A stretch of DNA of 64,000 nucleotides from a virus. Below, piece by piece: positions 760-62,656 of this stretch. The position numbers and the translations under genes were made by a program. Position 1 is the first letter of the stretch; each line of letters opens with the position of its first letter. The stretch lies in IMG/VR virus record IMGVR_UViG_3300030019_000003, positions 124,001-188,000 of that record; one strand, given 5' to 3'. The notes under the pieces are model-generated. The model had not been told where the DNA came from, searched no databases, and saw only the letters and a list, made by a program, of their open reading frames with translations.

Positions 760-1308
760 ATGATGAGAAATGACGGAAAGACCTATATCAATATAGGTAA
801 AGACGCTAAAACAGATTTAGGTAAAACACTTTGGCTGTATGCCGGTTTAAAGAAACAAATCACGTATGTTGATGAACAGGGCAAGAAGTTTAAGTTCATG
901 TCTTTAGGAGGCCTTTATGAGTATCTACGAGTACTTAATGTTATTAAGACATATAACTTTGAAGGTGTGCCGTTAGCTATTCTAGAAATGCTTGATGGTT
1001 TGAAAGAATCAAAAGGATTTAATAGTTTAGCCGTTGGTACTTCTATTATTCGTAAACTGGTTGAAACCAGACGATATACCCTAATAGATTTTCAAAAAGA
1101 TTCTGCTGCTAGGGCAAGTGTACTTACTGCTATGGTAGACACTTTGAACAACCAACCTAAATTGGTAAAAGCACTTGTTGAAAACACTTTACCATTAGGT
1201 TCTTTTAGGGTTATTGGGTATACATCTATATATCCAAATGTATCTGAAGCATGGGTTAGCGAAAATTGGAATAAAGCACTTGAGATTGTTAATTCCAATA
1301 AAAATTAA
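760..1308 (+). CDS. Unknown soluble protein
   Basis: 182 residues, starting at one of two adjacent ATG codons (760 or 763) after AAAGGAAA. It has no membrane segment or recognised motif. It is the last gene before the large gene-free region; its stop codon is followed almost at once by the promoter-like motif of the noncoding RNA, with no terminator hairpin between them, so transcription may run on into the RNA. Confidence 0.7.
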   Translation: MMRNDGKTYINIGKDAKTDLGKTLWLYAGLKKQITYVDEQGKKFKFMSLGGLYEYLRVLNVIKTYNFEGVPLAILEMLDGLKESKGFNSLAVGTSIIRKLVETRRYTLIDFQKDSAARASVLTAMVDTLNNQPKLVKALVENTLPLGSFRVIGYTSIYPNVSEAWVSENWNKALEIVNSNKN

Positions 1309-1311
1309 CAC

Positions 1312-1320
1312 CATATTATT
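1312..1320 (+). promoter_or_regulatory. Promoter-like motif (CATATTATT) ahead of the noncoding RNA
   Basis: CATATTATT followed by AAAAATGTAG. The same core plus an AT-K-TA tail occurs ahead of eight protein-coding units in this window (7304, 13419, 15714, 21096, 32335, 35351, 43343, 63088). Here no coding sequence follows for almost 1 kb, so it would drive the structured RNA. The function is inferred from recurrence and position. Confidence 0.5.
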
Positions 1321-2202
1321 AAAAATGTAGGGGCAATAGGGTGCAGTCTTAACCGACTGATACCTAGAGTAGCATAAACTACATAACCGGCAGGGATCAC
1401 ACCGTAGCTACCGTAAGGTAGTCTAGAAGTTATTTTTTAACAGGTCACTATTATATTGAGAATAAAAAATAACCGCTTAACAAAATTAGCGATTACTCTT
1501 CTCAGTTGGTTTATAACGGTCGCCCCCGGCCGTATAACTGACACCAGGTGATACATAATGCCCAGCAGGTTATGTATCGATAACAGTAATAGCTGTTATA
1601 CCTACCACTGCTGCAAACCTACTGCATGACAAAAAATCCGACAAATCGTTAGCAGTATTGGGAACACGCATGCAGAGAGTCGGTAATCGTTATGCGTGTT
1701 AAACTTGGTGCCATAATGGGTTTTCACATGCAACATGTGAAAAAGCTTAGCTTTTCGCCTGACTTTAAGTCATATCGCGATGTGATGCAAGCAGCTTAGA
1801 CTAACGTCTCGGCAAGCCGGTAAACCGGAGGGTGGGATTGGCAAAAAGACTAATATTAAAAGTACGATGTTACTAATAATTACTAATGGAATGCTGTATA
1901 TGTTGCAAACAGTTTGACTTAGTCTAGCGGCCAATGGTCGTTATGTCCACATCGGAGTTACTAGTTAAGCAGCCGCCAAGCGCAACCATAGGTTGGTATG
2001 CTAAAACACGTATATTATTAATAAACTAAAAAAAGGATATTAGTAATACATTAGCTATACTAAGCGTCGAAGACTGATAATATTTGCGTAGGCCACGTAG
2101 GTATTGTCAGTTTATTTTATATGGGTCGAGATGACCCACCTCTTTCGCAGTAATCGTTCACACACTCTGTAACTACTTCACGCACTAGTGCGTGAAGTAG
2201 TT
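1321..2202 (+). ncRNA. Large structured noncoding RNA, about 880 bases (GOLLD/ROOL-like class candidate)
   Basis: No reading frame of useful length exists here, but the + strand is dense in stems. Seen directly: 1344-1348/1355-1359; 1407-1412/1417-1422 with a GUAA tetraloop; a perfect 10-bp stem 1429-1438/1464-1473; 1502-1507/1536-1541 enclosing 1516-1519/1530-1533; a perfect 9-bp stem 1550-1558/1570-1578; 1580-1586/1593-1599; a perfect 9-bp stem 1663-1671/1692-1700; a perfect 10-bp stem 1721-1730/1734-1743; 1817-1820/1825-1828; 1983-1987/1991-1995; a 10-bp stem with one G-U pair around 2073-2082/2102-2111; 2122-2127/2133-2138. A terminator hairpin ends it. GC content is visibly higher than in the flanks. 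Giant ornate RNAs of this size (GOLLD, ROOL) are known from phages; assignment to either is inference, and it could be a new class. Group I and II intron cores, tmRNA and RNase P signatures were not found. Confidence 0.75.
2171..2202 (+). terminator. Intrinsic terminator of the noncoding RNA
   Basis: A perfect 16-bp inverted repeat (AACTACTTCACGCACT and its complement) is followed by a U-rich run reaching about 2225. It ends the structured RNA and separates it from the gene at 2288. Confidence 0.85.
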
Positions 2203-2287
2203 ATATTTATATTTTCATTTTTTTATAAAGATACATTATAAAAGTAATACTATAGCAAAGCTATATAAAGAAAATGAGGAGAATAAA

Positions 2288-2833
2288 ATGGATTACGCAC
2301 TCTATGAAAGAATGTTTAATGTTGTAAATGCTAGACTATTTACAAACCCTGCAGATAAGAGTTTACGCGGAAATGATCTAGCAAATGAGATTAGTTTTCA
2401 TATTTCAAATATGATTAATACTATTACAGGTAACTCGTTATTAACACAAAATAACAGAATGGACTGTATCAAAATAGTAATGGATAGACTTACAACACAA
2501 TACGAGCTTTCTAAAAGAATACTTTCATTGTTCGATGGTGAGACTATTACTATTGCTGATGTTAACAATGAAGTCTATGGCGATATAGTTGTTAACATCA
2601 TTATGGACAGGTTGGAGACAACTAAACAACATGAAAAGATCAGTAGTGCTTATCTACCGTTAAAAGTCTTTTTAAGTACAAATAAGTTAACTGTCGATGC
2701 TGAAGTTTCTCCTAGAGAAACATCATATCAAATATTTCTAGCTAATCCTGAATATGAAGCGTTGATTTGTAAACTTATAGCAGAGATCATCATGTCAAAA
2801 TCAGTTGCTGAGAGCATAAAGTTTACGTGGTAA
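2288..2833 (+). CDS. Unknown soluble protein
   Basis: 181 residues, start supported by GAGGAG eight bases upstream. Predominantly helical, acidic and without membrane segments; no motif recognised. It is the first gene after the noncoding RNA and its terminator. The short leader 2226-2287 contains a small hairpin (TATAGC/GCTATA) but none of the ATATTATT promoter motif, so its promoter is not identified. Confidence 0.75.
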   Translation: MDYALYERMFNVVNARLFTNPADKSLRGNDLANEISFHISNMINTITGNSLLTQNNRMDCIKIVMDRLTTQYELSKRILSLFDGETITIADVNNEVYGDIVVNIIMDRLETTKQHEKISSAYLPLKVFLSTNKLTVDAEVSPRETSYQIFLANPEYEALICKLIAEIIMSKSVAESIKFTW

Positions 2834-7303: not shown

Positions 7304-7395
7304 ACATATTATTTAATTAATAACGAACAAGTACGTTAGTAATTGTGAGTTAAACTAATAACCTATAACTAGTTTACTAGTTAAGTTACATTTAT
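7304..7395 (+). promoter_or_regulatory. Duplicated leader: promoter-like motif plus hairpin, copy 1
   Basis: It begins with ACATATTATT and continues as a stretch almost identical to 35351-35441: 55 identical bases, two differences, then 23 more identical bases. It contains a 7-bp repeat AACTAGT-TT-ACTAGTT nested inside an outer stem (around 7350-7364 with 7384-7392). Relative to copy 2, changes occur in both outer arms together, as expected for a conserved RNA hairpin. Copy 2 precedes an unrelated gene, so this is a regulatory cassette, not coding homology. Confidence 0.6.
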
Positions 7396-7415
7396 AAAAT
7401 TCAAGGAGATGTCTC

Positions 7416-7451
7416 ATGTATAAGAAGCTAACATGCAAAAGAAACATATAA
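7416..7451 (+). CDS. Possible 11-codon leader peptide (overlaps next gene)
   Basis: ATG at 7416 lies at ideal distance from AAGGAG (7404-7409) and opens an 11-codon frame, MYKKLTCKRNI, that ends inside the next gene, whose own ATG (7433) lacks a ribosome site. Either the leader couples translation into the next gene, or a base has been lost and the real start is 7416 in a shifted frame. Expression is unproven. Confidence 0.4.
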   Translation: MYKKLTCKRNI

Positions 7452-9633: not shown

Positions 9634-11019
9634 TTAAGCAGCTCTACGTTTATCTAATTCTATTTTTTCTAATAGAGTATCAATATTAAGAGTATCTAAA
9701 GAAGATGGGTCTAATATGTTATAAAGATACTGTATCTTATTTTTAGATTTAGCTACTAAACCAAGATGCTTAATAAGTTTCATTTCACTAGCAAGTCTTT
9801 CTATCTCTGTACGAATACGTATTTGATCTTCACGTTTACGTACTGCATCCATACCGCCAGCTTCTTCTACTTGGGTAGCTTTAACTGTTGTTAAGGTATT
9901 ATTAGGATTTAAACCATAGAATGATTTGTTAGAAGCCTCTGTCAAGAACCAGTATGGTAATAACCAAGCAACAACCATATCATCATGGCTATCAGAAGCA
10001 TGGTCTATTCTACCATTTTTAGATCGTAACCCTATAATCTGATTAATCAATCCGTTATCTCTTACAGTGTTACCTGTGTACTTAGTAGACGCCATAAAGG
10101 CTGCACCATAAAGTTTATCCCTTGCTTGTCTACCTGCCCCAGATGTTGCAAATCCAAACATGCTTCGATATTTGACATAGACGTTACTTTCTCTACGTAG
10201 CATACTAACATTAACAACTTCATTAAGATACTGTTTATTTACCATGCAGTCATTAACAACCCAGTTAAAGATACGTTTAAACGGATCAATAGTGTGCATT
10301 GGTAATATACGTAGTAAGTTATCAATGATCATAACACCACTAGATCTTCTTTCAGGAACTAGTATAGTATTATTGTATTTTATTAACAAGTCACCTATAA
10401 ACTCTGAGAATACGATAAGGTTAGTTTCATTATAGATACCTGTTGCGATAGTCTCACCTGATGATGCGTCTCTTATGATCATAGCAATATCATCTTTATT
10501 AACAGCATCAGAAGTATCTAGACCTACTATAAGTTTACGTGTTGGTAATCCAGCTTTAACTTCTTGTTCAGAAACATACCAGTTAGTGATATAACCACTT
10601 TTAGATAGTTCGGTATACTCAACTTTAGATTGTGATTTTTGAATATCCTCAATAACCTCTTTTGATAAAGGTGAAACATCTGAACCTTTAGCCCATAGGT
10701 TAAGGAAGTCTGCTCCGGCATTCTCACCTTTTGACATAGCCTCACTAATTTTCTCTTTTAACCACGCATCGGTATAACCTAATTGTCTATGGTTATATTC
10801 TAATAGTACTCTTAGTTCACCTGTAGGGCTATTTTTACATATAACAGATTTAAGAGCTTCAAGATCTTCAACATCAAAAAGTAACTCAGACCATCGCATA
10901 CTTTTAAGGTATAATTCTTCATAAGCAAACTTACCAGAATCAGTACTAATATACCCGGGGGTTGTTGTAAAAATATTGCCATAAGGAGCGTTAGCTGCTT
11001 TAGCAGAGTCTCTAGCCGC
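9634..11019 (-). CDS. terL: Terminase large subunit, second exon (coupling motif and nuclease domain)
   Basis: The frame opens at about 11019 with A-A-R-D-S-A-K-A-A-N-A-P and continues for 461 codons, the C-terminal part of the DNA-packaging motor. The coupling motif FTTTPGY is near its start. The RNase H-fold nuclease follows with the usual three acidic sites: GLDTSDAVNKDD, the glutamate of ILVPERRSSG, and SHDDMVVAWL. Joined to the first exon it gives a protein of about 710 residues, normal for large phages. The ATG at 10899 is internal and not a real start. The exact splice point is ambiguous because GGCGGC occurs at both boundaries. Confidence 0.85.
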   Translation of the reverse strand, partial: AARDSAKAANAPYGNIFTTTPGYISTDSGKFAYEELYLKSMRWSELLFDVEDLEALKSVICKNSPTGELRVLLEYNHRQLGYTDAWLKEKISEAMSKGENAGADFLNLWAKGSDVSPLSKEVIEDIQKSQSKVEYTELSKSGYITNWYVSEQEVKAGLPTRKLIVGLDTSDAVNKDDIAMIIRDASSGETIATGIYNETNLIVFSEFIGDLLIKYNNTILVPERRSSGVMIIDNLLRILPMHTIDPFKRIFNWVVNDCMVNKQYLNEVVNVSMLRRESNVYVKYRSMFGFATSGAGRQARDKLYGAAFMASTKYTGNTVRDNGLINQIIGLRSKNGRIDHASDSHDDMVVAWLLPYWFLTEASNKSFYGLNPNNTLTTVKATQVEEAGGMDAVRKREDQIRIRTEIERLASEMKLIKHLGLVAKSKNKIQYLYNILDPSSLDTLNIDTLLEKIELDKRRAA

Positions 11020-11446
11020 CTTGAATATTCAATGGGTTCGTTAGACCACATCCGCACCTCTATGTGCAGCTCACACTTTCATGTGACGATCAGGCTATCT
11101 CATCCTGAAAGGGCTTTCGCCGAATAGATCATATCTTTATCTTATATTTACTTAAGATAAACTTCGTTTCGATTTAAGGGATTTCATACCCGCCCACTTG
11201 GGCCCTACACCAATAACTGGTTGATCGTTGAGCACATCCCGTATATCACTTATGATACTTAGGGGCTTCGCTGCGTTGGTCGCCCAATCCTATTAAGTTT
11301 TTACTGTCCCGTTATGAATCATTACTCTAACGGTGTTATAGTATCTTTCGATCTATAAGTAGTATTAATAGGCTCTAAGGGGTTCTCCGCAATTAGAAGT
11401 TTTTGCTATATAGTGTCACCACTATATGGGGCACAGGCGGTTTTTA
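11020..11446 (-). ncRNA. Group I intron in the terminase gene, no internal ORF
   Basis: About 430 bases separate two terminase exons and carry stops in the terminase frame. On the minus strand the conserved core is visible in order: P/Q-like AATTGCGGAGAACCCC (about 11377-11392), R-like GTGCTCAACGATC (about 11223-11235), S-like AAGATATGATC (about 11127-11137), then a GCGAAAGC hairpin typical of P9. GGCGG at the end of exon 1 can pair with CCGCC just inside the intron (P1-like). It has no endonuclease frame, so it is either a remnant or moved by an endonuclease encoded elsewhere. It interrupts the gene between Walker B and the coupling motif. Confidence 0.85.
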
Positions 11447-12199
11447 GGCCGCCATTTTACCCTGGGCTGGAAGCATAGCTGGGATGGTTATGTCGGCATA
11501 ATTAATATAAGCAATCTCATCTACTTGGTTCGTTGGGAATGTCATACCACGTCCAACATTATAAGCTGATTTAGGATTGTTCTGCGCCACTGATGTTATG
11601 TATTGTGTATTATTAGAATTAACCGTTATCTTCTCAGTGTTATTCGTATCTGTTTTAGATCTCAACTGTAGCATAGCTGGGAGCTCACTCATGATGTCTT
11701 TGATACGTTTAACGTTGTTGACTCGCAGAGTATCATCTTTGGTCAGCAAGTTGATGCTAGAGCGTACAGACCCTACTGAAAGTAACCACACCATAAGAAT
11801 ATCTGTTGATACTGATTTACCAGTTTGTCGAGGTTGTATTAGTAATGTAGTCACATGATTAAAATATAACCAGTATAATGAAATGTTACCACGATTAGCT
11901 CTTAACACAACACCTTTTTCAACACCTTGTGCTGGAACTCTAACTACTTCTCTAAAGAAGTACCAAGGATTCTCAGAACACTCATCTACTATAAGAATAA
12001 TCTCTTCAACTGAAAGATCATCTGAATGGGGGTCAACCCCTTGAAGAGCTGGATTATGTAATGCTAAACAAAAGGCACAGTTCTTTATACCCATCTTGTG
12101 CATTTTGACAGCATACATTTTAAAAGAGTCATTAGTTGTCTTTAAGTCGGCTATGGCTCCAGGATGTTTATTAACCCAGTCGTTTAAATATAATATCAT
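11447..12199 (-). CDS. terL: Terminase large subunit, first exon (ATPase domain)
   Basis: Start ATG at 12199 follows GGGAGGATTAATA; the longer frame to 12217 has no better site. Residues 72-85 are DECSENPWYFFREV, a usual N-terminal terminase signature. Walker A is QPRQTGKS at about 122-129, and Walker B is probably the V-D-E in TNQVDEIAY near 235. The exon ends at G-K-M-A-A just before a stop that lies in the intron, so unspliced message would give a truncated ATPase domain of about 250 residues. It lies head-to-head with the nuclease gene at 12286. Confidence 0.9.
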
Positions 12200-12285
12200 T
12201 ATTAATCCTCCCGACACTATATTTTTTTATATAAGTCATATAATTTTTTAATAGACGTATTTTGCCTGAGTGTAAGGAGAAAGAC

Positions 12286-21138: not shown

Positions 21139-21318
21139 GTGAATGATACTTTAAAAATAGATGGTAAAAATAATGATCCTGGTAACCTAAGATGGGTTCC
21201 CAGAGATGAGGCTGTTCTTAATGAGATGTTGGTAACTGAAAGACGTAAAGGTAATAAGATTTTCCATAAGATTTGGGATAAGATTACTAACGCACTAAAA
21301 AAGAAAGGAAACAAATGA
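21139..21318 (+). CDS. Small basic protein coupled to RNA polymerase beta part
   Basis: 59 residues from GTG 21139 with AAAGGGG upstream; the stop overlaps the polymerase start (ATGA). Basic and lysine-rich at the C-terminus (A-L-K-K-K-G-N-K). No family recognised. Translational coupling to a polymerase subunit suggests an accessory role, or that it merely delivers ribosomes to the larger gene. Confidence 0.55.
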   Translation: MNDTLKIDGKNNDPGNLRWVPRDEAVLNEMLVTERRKGNKIFHKIWDKITNALKKKGNK

Positions 21319-23579
21319 CCGATGGAGTAACATCATCAGGTATACCTTATAATACACTCTTTGAAGATTTTCCAAGAGTTTTAGAAGTGGATCCTGATTT
21401 AGAGGTTAGGGAGGAGTTACTAAGCTTCCATGCTATGAATGGTAGTGTTGCTGAAAACTCATCAAGTCGTATGTTTATGTACTCTGCGCATGTTGCCCAG
21501 ATGCTAGCTATTATACATGGCGAAACGTCTATATGGCAATCCGGATTAGAGTCGCAATTCTCTAAAAATACTTTCTCGTGTAAAGCTAAAAATGATTGTA
21601 CCGTTCTAAGAGTTGTTTCGCGTTATAATGGTAATAGCAGCGATTATGCCAAGGGTCTTACAGAAGTAGTAGTCTTTGTTGTTGATAATGAAACAGGTGA
21701 GATAGATTTCATTAAGGTACCCTATTACCATACGTTACATCAGTATTTTGGTTTTAAATACATGTGGAATAAGGGTATCGTTAATGATCTTACAAAAGGG
21801 CTAAGACTTAAAAAAGGTACGGTGCTAGCTGACTCACCAACAGTCGGACCTAACGATACGTATAACTATGGTGTTAATGCTAACATAGCCCTTATGAGGC
21901 TACCAGAGACCGCAGAGGATGGTGTTATCATATCAGAGTCACTTTCTAATAAGTTAGTTTATAAGATCTTTGAAAGAAGAGTTATCAATTGTGGCGCAGA
22001 AAAGATTCCTCTTAATATCTATGGTGATGAAAATGAGTATAAAGCATTTCCAGAGATAGGTCAAAAGGTTAATACAGATAGTGTACTTATGGCGGTTCGC
22101 ACCTATGATGAAGCATTAGCTCCAGCATTATTTACCAAGAAAGCATTGATGGAATATGATCCACAATTCGATGAACCTTTCTATGTAAAAGGTCCTGGAA
22201 AAGATGAAGTTATTAACGGATTTGAGGTAACCTCAGGAACTGTGGTCGATGTAATTTCCTATTTTAACCCTAAATTCAAGAAGAGTATGTTCACAGGTGT
22301 AGCAGATGATGCTACAAAATATATTAATGGTTATAAGAAATACCATGAAGATATTATTGGTGCCTATGAGGATATTAAGAAAGAATACAGATCAGTCTAC
22401 GGTGATAATAATCTTAAACTTTCTGAAAGATTACACCGACAGATTATTAACAGTTATGCTATTGCAAATCCGGATGGTAACAAGATAGGATACTGTTTTA
22501 GAAAAGACAATCTTGATATTATACGTATTGAAATTGTAGTCGAATATACCGTCAGAGCAAAGGTGGGTTCAAAAATTTCTGATATGGCTGGATCCAAAGG
22601 TGTTATAGTACAAGTTAAACCAGACCATGAGATGCCAGTGGACATCTATGGTGAAAAAGCCCAAATTTTAATGGACCCGAGTGCTGTGGTTTCACGTATG
22701 AATATGGGAAGACTATATGGTGTCTATTTTAATGCCTCATCAAGGCACACCAAGTCATTAATTACTAACTGGTTGTATGCAGAAAAAACAAATTTCCCTA
22801 CTAGTAATTTAGACGCAATTCCTATTACTAAAGATATCGTTCTTAAACCTTTAAATCAGTATTCGGATGCTGTAATAAATACTGCATTTGATATTGCTGT
22901 AGGATTTACTGCTGTGTTTGGTACAGAACAATTTGAAGGTTATAGGGCGATAACAGATAGAGCCTCTAAAGAAAATATTCTTAAAGATATTGTTACTAAA
23001 GAGTTATTTTTCTATTACAGAGCTGGTAGCAAACGTAAACGTTATCAGGTTGCGTATGGTATTGAAAGTGCTATTTATAAACCTATACGCGATAGAGTTA
23101 AGTTTATTATGTATGGTAAAGAGTATATTAGTAAAAAACCTATAAGAATAGCACCACAGTATACTATCTTGTTAGGTAAAACTGCTGATAACTTCTTATC
23201 TACAGCATCTGCTAAGACTAATCACTTTGGTCTAGGTGTTGGTATCCCTAGTCATCAGAGACATCGTAATCCGTTTAAAGATACGGCAGTTAAAAATGAA
23301 TCTGAAACTGAAGGACGCTTGTTCGTATCTTTTGCGCCACCACAGTTTGTTGCTGAAATAAACGATAGAGCTAATAAAGATATCAACCGTTATATCTACG
23401 GTAAACTATTAAGAACTCCTAAGCCTACTAATGTAGGGCAGCTTATTGATAGGTCTGTTATACCTTATGGTAATAATTCAGCATTACAAGTAATAGAGTC
23501 GGTATTTAACTGTGCCGGAGTTGGTATTTCTTATGTAAGAGACAGCGCTGTTATACATGAGAATAAAGAAGGTGTATAA
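21315..23579 (+). CDS. Phage multisubunit RNA polymerase, beta C-terminal part
   Basis: 754 residues. Near the N-terminus, N-S-S-S-R-M-F-M-Y-S-A-H-V-A-Q resembles the beta segment NRALMGSNMQRQ. At about 416-430, KVGSKISDMAGSKGV matches the double-psi barrel lysine motif, and MDPSAVVSRMNMGRLYG (about 454-470) matches the NPLGVPSRMNIGQ region. The end resembles the beta clamp. This is the C-terminal half of a beta subunit, split as in phiKZ-like phages, where such polymerases transcribe phage genes independently of the host enzyme. The N-terminal half is probably 33624-35348. A short hairpin overlaps the stop codon. Confidence 0.88.
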   Translation: MTDGVTSSGIPYNTLFEDFPRVLEVDPDLEVREELLSFHAMNGSVAENSSSRMFMYSAHVAQMLAIIHGETSIWQSGLESQFSKNTFSCKAKNDCTVLRVVSRYNGNSSDYAKGLTEVVVFVVDNETGEIDFIKVPYYHTLHQYFGFKYMWNKGIVNDLTKGLRLKKGTVLADSPTVGPNDTYNYGVNANIALMRLPETAEDGVIISESLSNKLVYKIFERRVINCGAEKIPLNIYGDENEYKAFPEIGQKVNTDSVLMAVRTYDEALAPALFTKKALMEYDPQFDEPFYVKGPGKDEVINGFEVTSGTVVDVISYFNPKFKKSMFTGVADDATKYINGYKKYHEDIIGAYEDIKKEYRSVYGDNNLKLSERLHRQIINSYAIANPDGNKIGYCFRKDNLDIIRIEIVVEYTVRAKVGSKISDMAGSKGVIVQVKPDHEMPVDIYGEKAQILMDPSAVVSRMNMGRLYGVYFNASSRHTKSLITNWLYAEKTNFPTSNLDAIPITKDIVLKPLNQYSDAVINTAFDIAVGFTAVFGTEQFEGYRAITDRASKENILKDIVTKELFFYYRAGSKRKRYQVAYGIESAIYKPIRDRVKFIMYGKEYISKKPIRIAPQYTILLGKTADNFLSTASAKTNHFGLGVGIPSHQRHRNPFKDTAVKNESETEGRLFVSFAPPQFVAEINDRANKDINRYIYGKLLRTPKPTNVGQLIDRSVIPYGNNSALQVIESVFNCAGVGISYVRDSAVIHENKEGV

Positions 23580-30076: not shown

Positions 30077-32266
30077 ATGGCAATCTTTGCAGATGGCGAT
30101 AAATGCGCAAGACTATATACAAGTTTTTCAAAATCTTTTACACAAAAAGGCTTAGCAGGAAAACAAGCACTAACCTCTACAGGTCAAACACTCTCAAGTG
30201 AGAGTCTTACAGATGCTGAGAAAACAAATGCTATTTCAATTGGCGATGGCATTAGCGAAACTATTAAACAAGTTCTTTCTGCTGAAGGTCTTTATACACC
30301 AGGCGATGTTTCACATGAAAAAGGCTTACAAGCTGCAACAATGATTGCTAAACTTGGTAGCTTTGATGTTTATAAAAATGTTGCTGGTACAAAAGCAGCT
30401 TCAGCTAACGCTGGTGTTGTTACATCTGAACAACTTGGTTACAATTCAGGTACTGTTTTTGGTTCACTAGGTAATGAGGCTTATTCTGAGCAAGAGTATG
30501 ACAACAGTCTTTACTACTCTATCATGTTTAACTATGCTGTCGTACGCCAAGAAGACCTTATTGAAGCATTCTTCCCTACTATCGTCATTGATCCTGCACA
30601 AACTGCTATCGAAGTCGAGATCAGCCTTCTTAGCTATATGAAAGACTTTGTACATCCTCTTGATGGTTCACCTATCGAAGATACGATGGAAAAAGACTAT
30701 GTTATCAAAACGCTTTACTCTGAAAAATGGCTTGCAAGTAACAACCTTAAAATCGTTCCTGTTCTTAAAGCTGAAACAGCTGCAAGATTCATGACAGACC
30801 TTACTGTTGTTGATAGTTCAGGTTATGAGACAGTTGATACAGCTCCGTTACTTGTTAACCAAGATCACAACCTTATCTCATTGAGTGCAACTGATCTTAT
30901 GCTAGATCGTGGTATCATGGATAGATCTGATTACCTTGACAAAACACTTAAAGTTAAAAACATTTATGTTAAAGTTACAAGTGTTGATGGTACAGGTGCA
31001 GATGTTTCTGAAACATTCCGTATCCCGTTAAGTATTTACCTTGCTTCTAACTTCATGCCTGTTCAACAAGGTGAAGTAAGACGTTACCAATTGAATTTTG
31101 AGACAAATGATATCATCCTTGATAGCACTTTGAAAACAGCTAAAAACTCTATCTCAAATATCTTTAAAACGTTACTTGCTGCAAATGCCGTTAAACTACA
31201 TGTATCACTTTCTGGTAAAGTTGATTTACGTACAGGTACTATGAGTGTTGCTCCGATCAAAACTGAATTGTACAAAGTGTACGATACTGTTGGTAATGAA
31301 ATTTCTAAAAAAGATCCTTCATATGCTACGATCCTTGCTGGTTTCAAATCAATCGAAGTTACAGCTTATGATCCTGAAGCATATAGAACCAATGAGAACA
31401 CAAGAACTCCAGGTGTTTATTTAACATCTGATGTTGTTAAACATGCTTACCAAGTTCCATTCTTATCAGACACAAGTATTCTTGGACCTGAAGTAAAAAT
31501 CGGTGGTAACCTTTCTGATCTTAGCACTATTTCTTCTGTTATCGTTTCTACAGGCGCTAGACAATCACTTGCTGGTTTCAAACGTTTGAAAGACACTGCA
31601 ACTGAATTGAGTTATATTGCTAAATATGGTATCAGTGCAAATGCAAGTATTACAGGTATCGGTAGATATTTTGTAAACCCTTACTTTATTGCTGCGCAAA
31701 TCAATGTTAACGAATCTGTTGACAGTATGTCTTCAAGTGATCGTTTTGAAGATGTATCTGCTATGCTTAGAAATAAACTTCGTGATGCAGCTATGGAAAT
31801 GGCTCTTAACTCTAACTATTATGTTGCGTACAGAACACTTCGTCCAGGTAAACCACTTCGTGTTGTTATCGGTACAGGTGCAAGAACAAAAATGTATATC
31901 ATGGGTAAAAACAACGAAGACGTTATCAAACTTTCAGATGAGATTGAAGCATATGTATATGCTACTCCATACTCTGAGCTTGAAGGCGTTGTCTATATGT
32001 CATTTGCTACAGATGAAGGTTCTAAAGATTCTAAAATGGATCCATTTAACTTTGGTAACACAATCTGGTCACCATCATTTGTTGTTGATGTTAAGAAACA
32101 AACAAACGGTGCAAATAACCGTCTTATCTCTAACGTTCCTCGTTATGCGCATATCGTTAACCTTCCAGTTCTTTACTATGCAGAGATTTCTGACTTTGGT
32201 AGTGTTCTTGGTAAAGTTAGCAAAAATGTTAACATTCTTGGTACTGTTGAAATCGAACAAAAATAA
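30077..32266 (+). CDS. Major capsid protein, phiKZ-like
   Basis: 729 residues after AAGGAG. The segment around residues 150-175, N-Y-A-V-V-R-Q-E-D-L-I-E-A-F-F-P-T, matches the conserved core region of jumbo-phage capsid proteins; the length also fits. The gene stands out by codon use: CTT, GGT, GTT and AAA dominate, and rarer codons seen in the neighbours are avoided, as expected for the most abundant virion protein. Phages of this group often process the N-terminus during head maturation; a site cannot be placed here. Its own hairpin leader and a very strong terminator make it a single-gene unit. Confidence 0.85.
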   Translation: MAIFADGDKCARLYTSFSKSFTQKGLAGKQALTSTGQTLSSESLTDAEKTNAISIGDGISETIKQVLSAEGLYTPGDVSHEKGLQAATMIAKLGSFDVYKNVAGTKAASANAGVVTSEQLGYNSGTVFGSLGNEAYSEQEYDNSLYYSIMFNYAVVRQEDLIEAFFPTIVIDPAQTAIEVEISLLSYMKDFVHPLDGSPIEDTMEKDYVIKTLYSEKWLASNNLKIVPVLKAETAARFMTDLTVVDSSGYETVDTAPLLVNQDHNLISLSATDLMLDRGIMDRSDYLDKTLKVKNIYVKVTSVDGTGADVSETFRIPLSIYLASNFMPVQQGEVRRYQLNFETNDIILDSTLKTAKNSISNIFKTLLAANAVKLHVSLSGKVDLRTGTMSVAPIKTELYKVYDTVGNEISKKDPSYATILAGFKSIEVTAYDPEAYRTNENTRTPGVYLTSDVVKHAYQVPFLSDTSILGPEVKIGGNLSDLSTISSVIVSTGARQSLAGFKRLKDTATELSYIAKYGISANASITGIGRYFVNPYFIAAQINVNESVDSMSSSDRFEDVSAMLRNKLRDAAMEMALNSNYYVAYRTLRPGKPLRVVIGTGARTKMYIMGKNNEDVIKLSDEIEAYVYATPYSELEGVVYMSFATDEGSKDSKMDPFNFGNTIWSPSFVVDVKKQTNGANNRLISNVPRYAHIVNLPVLYYAEISDFGSVLGKVSKNVNILGTVEIEQK

Positions 32267-35350: not shown

Positions 35351-35441
35351 ACATATTATTTAATTAATAACGAACAAGTACGTTAGTAATTGTGAGTTAA
35401 ACTAGCAACCTATAACTAGTTTACTAGTTGCTGGTTAACTA
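35351..35441 (+). promoter_or_regulatory. Duplicated leader: promoter-like motif plus hairpin, copy 2
   Basis: Near-identical to 7304-7395. It begins with ACATATTATT, two bases after the preceding stop. The outer stem is stronger here (CTAGCAAC pairing with GTTGCTGG, extended by GTTAA/TTAAC), enclosing the AACTAGT/ACTAGTT repeat. It precedes the gene at 35474. Confidence 0.6.
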
Positions 35442-35473
35442 TAAAAATAAATAAAAACCCAAAGGAAGTAAAC

Positions 35474-60463: not shown

Positions 60464-60526
60464 ATGACCTCCTTAATTTCTGTGTACATGATTCCATGAA
60501 TATTAACTTAATATCAAGGAAACGTG

Positions 60527-62656
60527 ATGATATTACAGAGATTTATAAAGAATCCCAGCACATTTAACATAGAACTACTATTAGTTTTGACTCCTGAAAA
60601 CTCTAGGATGTTGAAAGAAGTAAAGAAACCTACTATATTTGAACCTAATACGCAAGTGTTTGATAAAGAAGGATTATTTTCTACAGAAATATTTGGTCCA
60701 GTTGGATCTACTATGCGTAAAGTTTTACCGGGCTATATTGATTTAGGGGTATCTGTTATTCACCCTGAGATATATGATTCTATATCACAACTTGGATCAA
60801 TTTACGCTAGCATCATGTCAGGTGAACAAAGAGTAAGATACAATAAGATTACACGTAACTTTGATCCTGTCACAGATGAGGAAGAAGGACAAACAGGTTA
60901 TAAGTATTTTCTAGATCATTACTTCGCAGGTAAGATTTCTTTTATGGAGAATGATAGTAGTAAGCGACAGTATAACTTAAAAATAGTTGAAAACGGAATG
61001 GATGTTACCAAAACGATTACTAAAATGATCGTGTTGCCAGCAGGACTTAGAGATTATACCATTAACAAGTCTGGAAGGGGTGAAGAAGACGAAGTTAATA
61101 CTCTCTATAGAAAAGTACTCGCCATTACGAGTATGGTTAAAAACACCACTCTAGATGATGATAACTTAGCACTACTTGATCCGATGCGTTTTAGATTACA
61201 GATGGCGTTTAACGAGATCTATAATCACTTTGCCGATCTTATGGATGGTAAGAATAAATTCTTACAAAGTAAATTTTCAAAACGTGCTATCATGTTTGGT
61301 ACACGTAATGTTATTACATCAACACCTAACTATATTACAGATTTAAAATCTCCGACCAAAACAGGTGTGAACCATACGATTGTTGGTATTTATCAATTTA
61401 TAAAAAGTATAACACCTATTGCTGCTAATAAGGTTATTAACATTTTTATTAGTCGATTTATGAACCCAACAACTAACACGGCAATATTAGTTAACCCCAA
61501 AACAATGAAAACTGAAATTGTTGATATTCCTGTTAAAAAGAGAGATGACTGGATATCGTTAGACGGATTAAATAATCTGTTTAATAAATTTGCACAAGAT
61601 AGTTTTAAAAGTTTACCTGTTAAGATTAATGGTTATTATCTTATGCTAATTTACGATGACGGTAAAAATGTTAAGTACTATTTTAACACCGATGATATTG
61701 ATGAAAAAACAGATAGAAAGTATATCAGGCCTATTACCTATATTGAGCTTGTTTACATGGCGATATACGATGTTAAAGATAAATACCCAGCATTCTTAAC
61801 ACGTTATCCTGTCGCTGCTCTGGGCGGTATCTATCCAAGTTATCAATACGTTAAAACAACTATAAACGGTAGAACTGTTAACTTTAGTATGGACAACATT
61901 TCTAAAACAGTTTATGAGTATCCTAAACTAGGTGATGAGTACGTTAACTCTATGTCAATTTCACAATACCATCTAAAGCGAGCTGGCGCAGATTATGATG
62001 GCGATATGATGAGCAGTAATGGGCTATTAACAGCAGAGTCTATAGCTGAAGTAAAAAGGATTCTTAATACAAAAGAATACTATATTACTCCAGACGGTGA
62101 AGCTACCTATACTATAGCTACAGATACTTTAGAATATGTTATGGCTCATTTATCAGATACTAGTCTATTATCTAAGGTATATCAATTTCAAGAGCTAACA
62201 GATTTCATACCTGTTGATAAACTTTGCACCGCTTTAACAAAAATTTATAATACTTCTTTTGGTCATAATGAAACTGTAGAAACATTTAAAAAATGGTTAG
62301 AGACACGAATATACCGAGAAGGTGATGAAGTTGATGTTGTTGCTAATGGTAAAGGTGATATATACGGATATGGTAGATACCGAGAATTTAATAAAGGTAC
62401 AGAGATTTACTCACCTCTTTCTAAAACTAAGAGATATGGTTTTATTTCAGATCTAGCCAGTGTTGTTAAAGGAACTGGTACTAAGATACTAAACCATATA
62501 TTAACCGAAGTAGATACTAAGAAAATAGATGTGATGCTTTTAGCTAGAACTGAAAGTCTTATACCTTACTATGAGAAATTTGGATTTAAAGTTGTTGATG
62601 CTAAAGGTGTCAATGTAAAGATAACTAAACCTTTGATGGTGAGGTACGCACAGTAA
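60527..62656 (+). CDS. Phage RNA polymerase beta-prime N-terminal part with C-terminal GNAT-like domain
   Basis: About 709 residues from ATG 60527 (AAGGA upstream). F-S-K-R-A-I-M-F-G-T-R-N-V-I-T matches the beta-prime LLGKRVDYSGRSVI segment. R-Y-P-V-A-A-L-G-G-I-Y-P-S matches the RAPTLHRLGIQ region, and A-D-Y-D-G-D-M-M at about 489-496 is the catalytic NADFDGDQM motif binding the active-site magnesium. After about 550 the protein departs from beta-prime: I-S-D-L-A-S-V-V-K-G-T-G-T-K-I-L and, near 680-688, P-Y-Y-E-K-F-G-F are the two landmark motifs of GNAT acetyltransferases. The remaining beta-prime half must lie outside the window. The stop overlaps the HNH gene start. Confidence 0.85.
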   Translation: MILQRFIKNPSTFNIELLLVLTPENSRMLKEVKKPTIFEPNTQVFDKEGLFSTEIFGPVGSTMRKVLPGYIDLGVSVIHPEIYDSISQLGSIYASIMSGEQRVRYNKITRNFDPVTDEEEGQTGYKYFLDHYFAGKISFMENDSSKRQYNLKIVENGMDVTKTITKMIVLPAGLRDYTINKSGRGEEDEVNTLYRKVLAITSMVKNTTLDDDNLALLDPMRFRLQMAFNEIYNHFADLMDGKNKFLQSKFSKRAIMFGTRNVITSTPNYITDLKSPTKTGVNHTIVGIYQFIKSITPIAANKVINIFISRFMNPTTNTAILVNPKTMKTEIVDIPVKKRDDWISLDGLNNLFNKFAQDSFKSLPVKINGYYLMLIYDDGKNVKYYFNTDDIDEKTDRKYIRPITYIELVYMAIYDVKDKYPAFLTRYPVAALGGIYPSYQYVKTTINGRTVNFSMDNISKTVYEYPKLGDEYVNSMSISQYHLKRAGADYDGDMMSSNGLLTAESIAEVKRILNTKEYYITPDGEATYTIATDTLEYVMAHLSDTSLLSKVYQFQELTDFIPVDKLCTALTKIYNTSFGHNETVETFKKWLETRIYREGDEVDVVANGKGDIYGYGRYREFNKGTEIYSPLSKTKRYGFISDLASVVKGTGTKILNHILTEVDTKKIDVMLLARTESLIPYYEKFGFKVVDAKGVNVKITKPLMVRYAQ

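What the first reader, a model, noticed from the sequence alone, without database searches (positions are those of the whole stretch)
1312..2202. An ~880-base, highly structured noncoding RNA in a phage genome
Seen: a gene-free stretch with at least a dozen stems on the plus strand, several of 9-10 perfect base pairs, a GUAA tetraloop, higher GC than the flanks, a promoter-like motif at its start and a 16-bp terminator with U-run at its end. Known: GOLLD and ROOL are giant ornate phage RNAs of 500-900 bases that assemble into multimeric cages. Inference: this is a member, a distant relative or a new class of such RNAs. It is the strongest candidate for an undescribed system here.
Basis: partly seen in the sequence, partly recalled or inferred. 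Interest (0 to 1): 0.92.

Follow-up and report, generated by a model that had tools for sequence, protein, structure and literature searches.

The report
Orphan giant structured phage RNA
A jumbo virus of bacteria, distantly related to phage phiKZ, carries what looks like its own gene for an unusually long folded RNA (about 880 bases) that makes no protein; it matches no known RNA family, no relative of it could be found, and what it does is unknown.

Summary
Window 1309-2287 is a 979-base gap with no credible ORF in a phiKZ-like jumbo phage. A predicted ~880-nt transcript (about 1326-2205) has raised GC, about a dozen stems, a GUAA tetraloop, a 19-bp stem with five G-U pairs and a 17-bp terminator.

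New evidence that it is a separate transcription unit: the phage's own promoter (ATATTAT-6N, resembling the AR9 early promoter) was derived from 19 other sites in the genome. It recurs at 1313, and a second copy at 2231 serves the next gene.

Nothing in Rfam matches (GOLLD, ROOL, OLE and introns included) at E<=10. No homologue was found by BLAST, nhmmer, covariance models of two domains, or scans of viral and genome contigs. The only other copy is 100% identical. Against real windows of this genome the folding excess is in the top ~3%, not the z=-7 that shuffling suggests.

Best reading: a lineage-specific large structured ncRNA gene, probably early, possibly a scaffold or RNA-only particle that works like GOLLD/ROOL but is not shown to be a member of either. 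Function is inferred only.

The parts
1301..1328 (+). Phage-type promoter of the RNA; core ATATTAT 1313-1319, start expected about 1326 by analogy with AR9 (6N spacing)
   Evidence: Matrix trained on 19 other sites scores it 11.8; at that level or above only 1 site (14.2) lies on the minus strand among ~250 kb, and 2 at 11 or above. AR9 early consensus AAATATATATTAT-6N-G from PMC5312081. One of the weaker sites.
1326..2205 (+). Predicted large noncoding RNA (about 880 nt)
   Evidence: ORF-free gap, fold excess, own promoter and terminator. No transcript data.
1329..2143 (+). Closing helix 1329-1333 / 2139-2143 joining the 5' and 3' ends
   Evidence: Mean pair probability 0.53; present in MFE, centroid and MEA structures
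1339..1473 (+). 5' domain: hairpins 1339-1365, 1369-1382, 1405-1425 (GUAA tetraloop 1413-1416) and 1429-1473
   Evidence: Pair probabilities 0.56-1.0
1487..1692 (+). Second domain: closed by 10-bp helix 1487-1496/1683-1692, with hairpins 1505-1542, 1550-1578, 1580-1599 and 1608-1675
   Evidence: Hairpins mostly 0.66-0.98, closing helices 0.36-0.56
1704..1980 (+). Third domain: multibranched, closed by 1704-1710/1974-1980, with hairpins 1721-1743, 1794-1813, 1816-1842 and 1925-1943
   Evidence: Hairpins 0.72-0.99, closing helices 0.3-0.7
2013..2048 (+). 11-bp hairpin with an A-rich internal loop
   Evidence: Pair probability 0.94
2071..2113 (+). 19-bp stem-loop with five G-U pairs, which would be A-C mismatches on the other strand: favours an RNA read from the + strand
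   Evidence: Pair probability 0.98; window 1925-2174 z=-3.4 on + against 0.1 on -
2122..2138 (+). Hairpin UGGGUC-GAGAU-GACCCA next to the closing helix
   Evidence: Pair probability 0.95
2168..2226 (+). Intrinsic terminator: 17-bp stem 2168-2205 and a U-rich tail
   Evidence: also a perfect 34-nt palindrome 2170-2203
2221..2248 (+). Phage-type promoter of the next gene (TTTTATAAAGATACATTATAAAAGTAAT)
   Evidence: Matrix score 13.8; near-identical sites elsewhere in the genome
760..1308 (+). Upstream neighbour, 182 aa, unknown (weak phrog_652 match); ends 18 bases before the expected RNA start
2288..2833 (+). Downstream neighbour, 181 aa, unknown

Best explanation
1326-2205 is a stand-alone gene for a large structured noncoding RNA of a phiKZ-like jumbo phage (confidence about 0.8). 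The phage's own RNA polymerase, most likely the injected virion enzyme since the promoter looks early, starts at about 1326, runs through three multibranched domains closed by a 5'-3' helix, and stops at the 2168-2205 terminator; the next gene then restarts from its own promoter. Inferred mechanism (about 0.3): the transcript folds into a stable globular RNA that acts as a structural scaffold or self-associating particle, working like the ornate phage RNAs GOLLD and ROOL, which form RNA-only multimers. Shown here: sequence anatomy, predicted folding, promoter family, terminator, absence of coding potential. Inferred: transcription, timing, multimerisation, role.
For: ORF-free 979-base gap, the longest in the held genome that no intron, tRNA or gene explains. 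Promoter type learned from other sites recurs at 1313 and again at 2231, either side of the RNA. Terminator and 19-bp G-U-rich stem. Fold excess above the genome's own background and larger than that of two recognised group I introns of the same genome. No match to introns, tRNAs or any other Rfam family.
Against: No homologue and so no covariation. The promoter copy is one of the weaker ones, with T at the expected +1. The fold excess without the terminator is only top ~3% of genome windows, and long-range helices have probabilities near 0.3-0.6. No transcript data. Nothing shows multimerisation.
Confidence: 0.4

Rival explanations
1. The region is a precursor or bundle of several shorter RNAs (for example a 5' part and a 3' part around the 2071-2113 stem), acting as sponges or decoys for a host RNA-binding protein, ribosome or nuclease rather than as one particle.
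For: Independent local hairpins are better supported than the long-range helices; the 19-bp stem is itself terminator-like; phiKZ makes short UTR-derived ncRNAs (PMC8545117).
Against: A closing 5'-3' helix appears in MFE, centroid and MEA; an ATATTATT at 2012 does not score as an internal promoter (-6.4).
Confidence: 0.22
2. It is an untranslated region: a trailer of the upstream operon or a long leader of the 2288 gene, with structure serving stability or attenuation.
For: Same strand as both neighbours, and the expected start is only 18 bases after the upstream stop codon.
Against: Promoter-type sites lie at both edges and a strong terminator lies between the RNA and the next gene; an untranslated region of this size is unusual in this compact genome.
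Confidence: 0.15
3. It is not an RNA gene but decayed DNA (a dead gene or mobile element) or a DNA site such as an origin; the stems are inverted repeats.
For: The minus strand also folds better than shuffles; another locus in the genome folds more strongly; one distant relative carries IS605-like remnants whose RNA end looks loosely similar to 1388-1428.
Against: Five G-U pairs in the 19-bp stem and the + strand advantage there; raised GC; no significant protein remnants in the longest frames; the 5' covariance model finds no match in the IS605-bearing record and TnpB is not found in the genome.
Confidence: 0.15
4. It is a highly diverged GOLLD or ROOL RNA.
For: Similar length (many GOLLD members exceed 800 nt, PMC12286853), phage location, ornate predicted fold, GNRA loop.
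Against: No match to either model at E<=10; not near tRNAs; no match in relatives.
Confidence: 0.06
5. It is an RNA-guided nuclease guide (TnpB omega-RNA-like) encoded without its nuclease.
For: 1388-1428 is about 30/41 identical to the omega-RNA-like right ends of IS605-type elements in G004.
Against: nhmmer E=3.8; no match in G004 with the covariance model; no TnpB in the genome; far too long.
Confidence: 0.02

Closest known systems
GOLLD RNA (Rfam RF02032)
   Same: Phage-encoded, more than 800 nt, elaborate multibranched predicted fold, GNRA-type loop
   Different: No covariance-model match at E<=10; not beside tRNA genes; no conserved 3' region demonstrable; multimerisation untested
ROOL RNA (Rfam RF03087)
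   Same: Phage-encoded large structured RNA
   Different: No model match in this genome or 47 related records; the model is 574 positions, this RNA about 880 nt; not near a tRNA island
phiKZ UTR-derived ncRNAs (PHIKZ298 3' UTR, p40 5' UTR; PMC8545117)
   Same: Noncoding RNAs of a phage of the same broad group, hairpin-rich
   Different: 100-180 nt and thought to derive from UTRs of mRNAs; here an ~880-nt unit with its own promoter and terminator
Group I introns (Rfam RF00028), common in this phage group
   Same: Large structured RNA; several in this genome
   Different: No match here at E<=10, whereas the genuine intron at 11070-11455 (-) in the same window scores 52 bits; flanking ORFs are complete genes, not split exons
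OLE RNA and other Rfam families
   Same: Large ornate noncoding RNA
   Different: No match to OLE; in the region only low-scoring short-hairpin matches far below gathering scores

Membership tests
GOLLD | Covariance model match (RF02032) | tested here: not met
   cmscan E<=10 on 1200-2300 gives none; genome and relatives none, but no positive control rang
GOLLD | Often near or containing tRNA genes | tested here: not met
   No tRNA in the window; single tRNA-Met found elsewhere in the genome
GOLLD | Homo-14-mer cage | not testable with these tools
   Needs native gel or cryo-EM
ROOL | Covariance model match (RF03087) | tested here: not met
   None at E<=10; none in 48 records, but no positive control rang
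ROOL | Near tRNA island | tested here: not met
Group I intron | Conserved catalytic core (RF00028) inside a split gene | tested here: not met
   No match at E<=10; positive control in the same window scores 52.2 bits
Group II intron | Domain models, e.g. RF01998 | tested here: not met
TnpB omega-RNA | Associated TnpB gene and homology to omega-RNA | tested here: not met
   No PF07282 in genome, with working controls; similarity at chance level
Structured ncRNA class (any) | Covariation among divergent homologues | tested here: inconclusive
   No divergent homologue found; only a 100% identical copy
Stand-alone phage ncRNA gene | Own promoter and terminator, no coding potential | tested here: met
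   (by sequence; transcription not measured)

The most novel reading that the evidence does not exclude
A new class of giant ornate RNA, unrelated to GOLLD, ROOL and OLE, made early by the virion polymerase of a phiKZ-like phage and assembling into an RNA-only particle during host takeover.
Probability: 0.15. Interest if true: 0.85.

Novelty: new variant of a known kind. Interest (0 to 1): 0.52.

Why it matters
Only a few giant structured RNAs are known, and those of phages form RNA cages whose purpose is unknown. An unrelated one in the phiKZ lineage would show that such RNAs arose more than once and would tie them to a host-takeover stage that can be studied. At present it is an orphan prediction, so its value is as a well-bounded candidate for RNA-seq and structure probing.

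Tried and rejected
Rfam at gathering and at E<=10: only low-scoring short-hairpin matches such as RsaJ on the antisense of the terminator. BLASTN against phages: none; a 71-base core against phages and plasmids: chance only. Exact-pattern scans of viral contigs: only the identical contig, plus two stretches of the G004 contig from the IS605-like ends. Flanking proteins: near-identical contigs only, apart from one weak 26% match.

RNA polymerase alignments gave about 100 phiKZ-like records, the nearest at 45-49% identity; none lies between that and identity. DNA, nhmmer and covariance models of the 5' and 3' domains against these: the best hits are short AT-rich stretches, a coding frame or a group I intron region, so all rejected.

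Omega-RNA reading: followed and rejected. Candidate RNAs beside tRNAs in G003 and G013: no sequence similarity to this one. Internal promoter at 2012: rejected by matrix score. Recoded reading frames: longest 112 codons (TGA read through, minus strand), not convincing. An attempt to search GOLLD under the wrong accession (RF01998) searched a group II intron model instead; repeated with RF02032.

Full report
WHAT THE GENOME IS. The window is bases 124001-188000 of a 252,159-base virus record. It encodes split beta/beta'-like RNA polymerase subunits (21315-23579, 60524-62656), a phiKZ-type major head protein (30077-32266) and other phiKZ-family proteins. Isolated phages match the polymerase at 25-29% identity, the closest metagenomic records at 45-49%. 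It is thus an isolated lineage of RNAP-encoding jumbo phages.

OBSERVATION. Between complete ORFs 760-1308 and 2288-2833 lie 979 bases with no stop-to-stop frame over 56 codons and no convincing start. GC is above the flanks. The + strand folds to -274 kcal/mol, z=-7.0 against shuffles; the - strand z=-5.5. I judged this against real sequence too: with the terminator removed the + strand excess is -39 kcal/mol, where 60 random windows of the same genome average -13.5 (sd 13.4) and two, from one locus, exceed it. Perfect Watson-Crick stems total 39 bp, reached by 4 of 280 windows. The structure is therefore real enrichment, but the shuffle z overstates it. Two recognised group I introns of this genome show a smaller excess (10900-11443 minus, -19.6; L110:5054-5568 minus, -12.4), a third (L118:4950-5684) about the same, -39.

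BOUNDARIES. Over-represented intergenic words revealed a phage promoter family, roughly TTAACnAyATATTATTyAnTTA, on the + strand only (22 sites at score 16 or more, none on the - strand). It resembles the experimentally mapped AR9 early promoter AAATATATATTAT-(6N)-G (PMC5312081), assigned there to the virion RNA polymerase. A matrix built without the RNA site scores that site 11.8. The next gene has the TATAAAGATACATTATAAAAGTA form at 2221-2248, score 13.8. Between the two lies a 17-bp terminator. The unit promoter-RNA-terminator-promoter-gene is the strongest argument for a separate RNA gene. The timing (early) is inferred from resemblance only.

ANATOMY. Helices with probabilities are: 5' domain 1339-1473 with the GUAA hairpin; domain 1487-1692; domain 1704-1980; hairpins 2013-2048, 2071-2113 and 2122-2138; a five-pair helix 1329-1333/2139-2143 that closes the whole. 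Local hairpins are well defined, long-range helices moderately. The 19-bp stem uses five G-U pairs; the stretch 1925-2174 folds well only on the + strand (z -3.4 against 0.1), which speaks for an RNA rather than a DNA palindrome.

RELATIVES. One identical contig exists. No diverged homologue turned up by BLASTN, pattern scans, nhmmer, or covariance models R1 (1336-1476) and R2 (2008-2145) in 36 records. The closest chance match led to IS605-type elements in G004 whose ends look like TnpB guide RNAs (the omega-RNA resemblance is from my own knowledge of such ends). The similarity to the window RNA is at chance level (E=3.8), the covariance model does not reproduce it and the genome has no TnpB, so I reject it. 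In the relative G003 no ORF-free gap of 350 bases or more lies at the corresponding distance from the terminase gene. The RNA is lineage-specific as far as can be seen, and covariation could not be tested.

KNOWN FAMILIES. GOLLD and ROOL are phage and prophage RNAs, often near tRNA islands, that form RNA-only cages (PMC12286853). This RNA shares size and kind with GOLLD but matches neither model and is not beside a tRNA. It may work like them; it is not shown to be one of them. Group I and II introns are excluded by model, with a group I positive control in the same window.

VERDICT. A credible, well-bounded orphan large ncRNA gene; class, function and even expression unproven. Interest is moderate: high if expression and multimerisation are shown.

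Noticed in passing
window 10900-11443 (core 11070-11455, minus strand): Group I intron (52.2 bits) splitting what looks like the terminase large subunit gene: exon ORFs 11444-12217 (terminase families) and 9634-10899, which lie about 120 bases apart in relatives.
   Followed up: yes
window, e.g. 7305, 15715, 21097, 32336, 35352, 63089, and other parts of the genome: A genome-wide phage promoter family (ATATTAT-6N), 22 strong sites, found on the + strand only; resembles AR9 early promoters.
   Followed up: partly
window ~7305-7420 and ~35352-35470: Near-identical long leader sequence after two promoters (AATTAATAACGAACAAGTACGTTAGTAATTGTGAGTTAAACTA...ACTAGTTTACTAGTT), partly shared with other promoters of the genome: a repeated 5' leader of unknown role.
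   Followed up: no
L144:13042-13620 (G013) and L123:9315-9923 minus (G003): ORF-free, GC-raised 550-600-base stretches directly upstream of tRNA genes in the two most complete near relatives; no Rfam match and no similarity to the window RNA: possible further large RNAs.
   Followed up: partly
L144:13600-15000 (G013): Dense array of tRNA genes, some with unusually long matches that suggest insertions, and some only weakly recognised by the standard model.
   Followed up: no
L172:8391-8771 (G021): Very strongly structured 381-base gap (z about -11 on +, -8.7 on -) next to the RNA polymerase beta gene of a relative; no Rfam match.
   Followed up: no
L149:1-100, L150:18050-18320, L152:850-1000 (G004): At least three IS605-like elements without a full TnpB gene, with conserved omega-RNA-like right ends and different following sequence; one sits right behind the major head gene.
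   Followed up: partly
L118:4907-5317 and L110:5054-5568 (same genome): Further group I introns in this phage: the first by Rfam, the second by alignment to intron sequences.
   Followed up: partly
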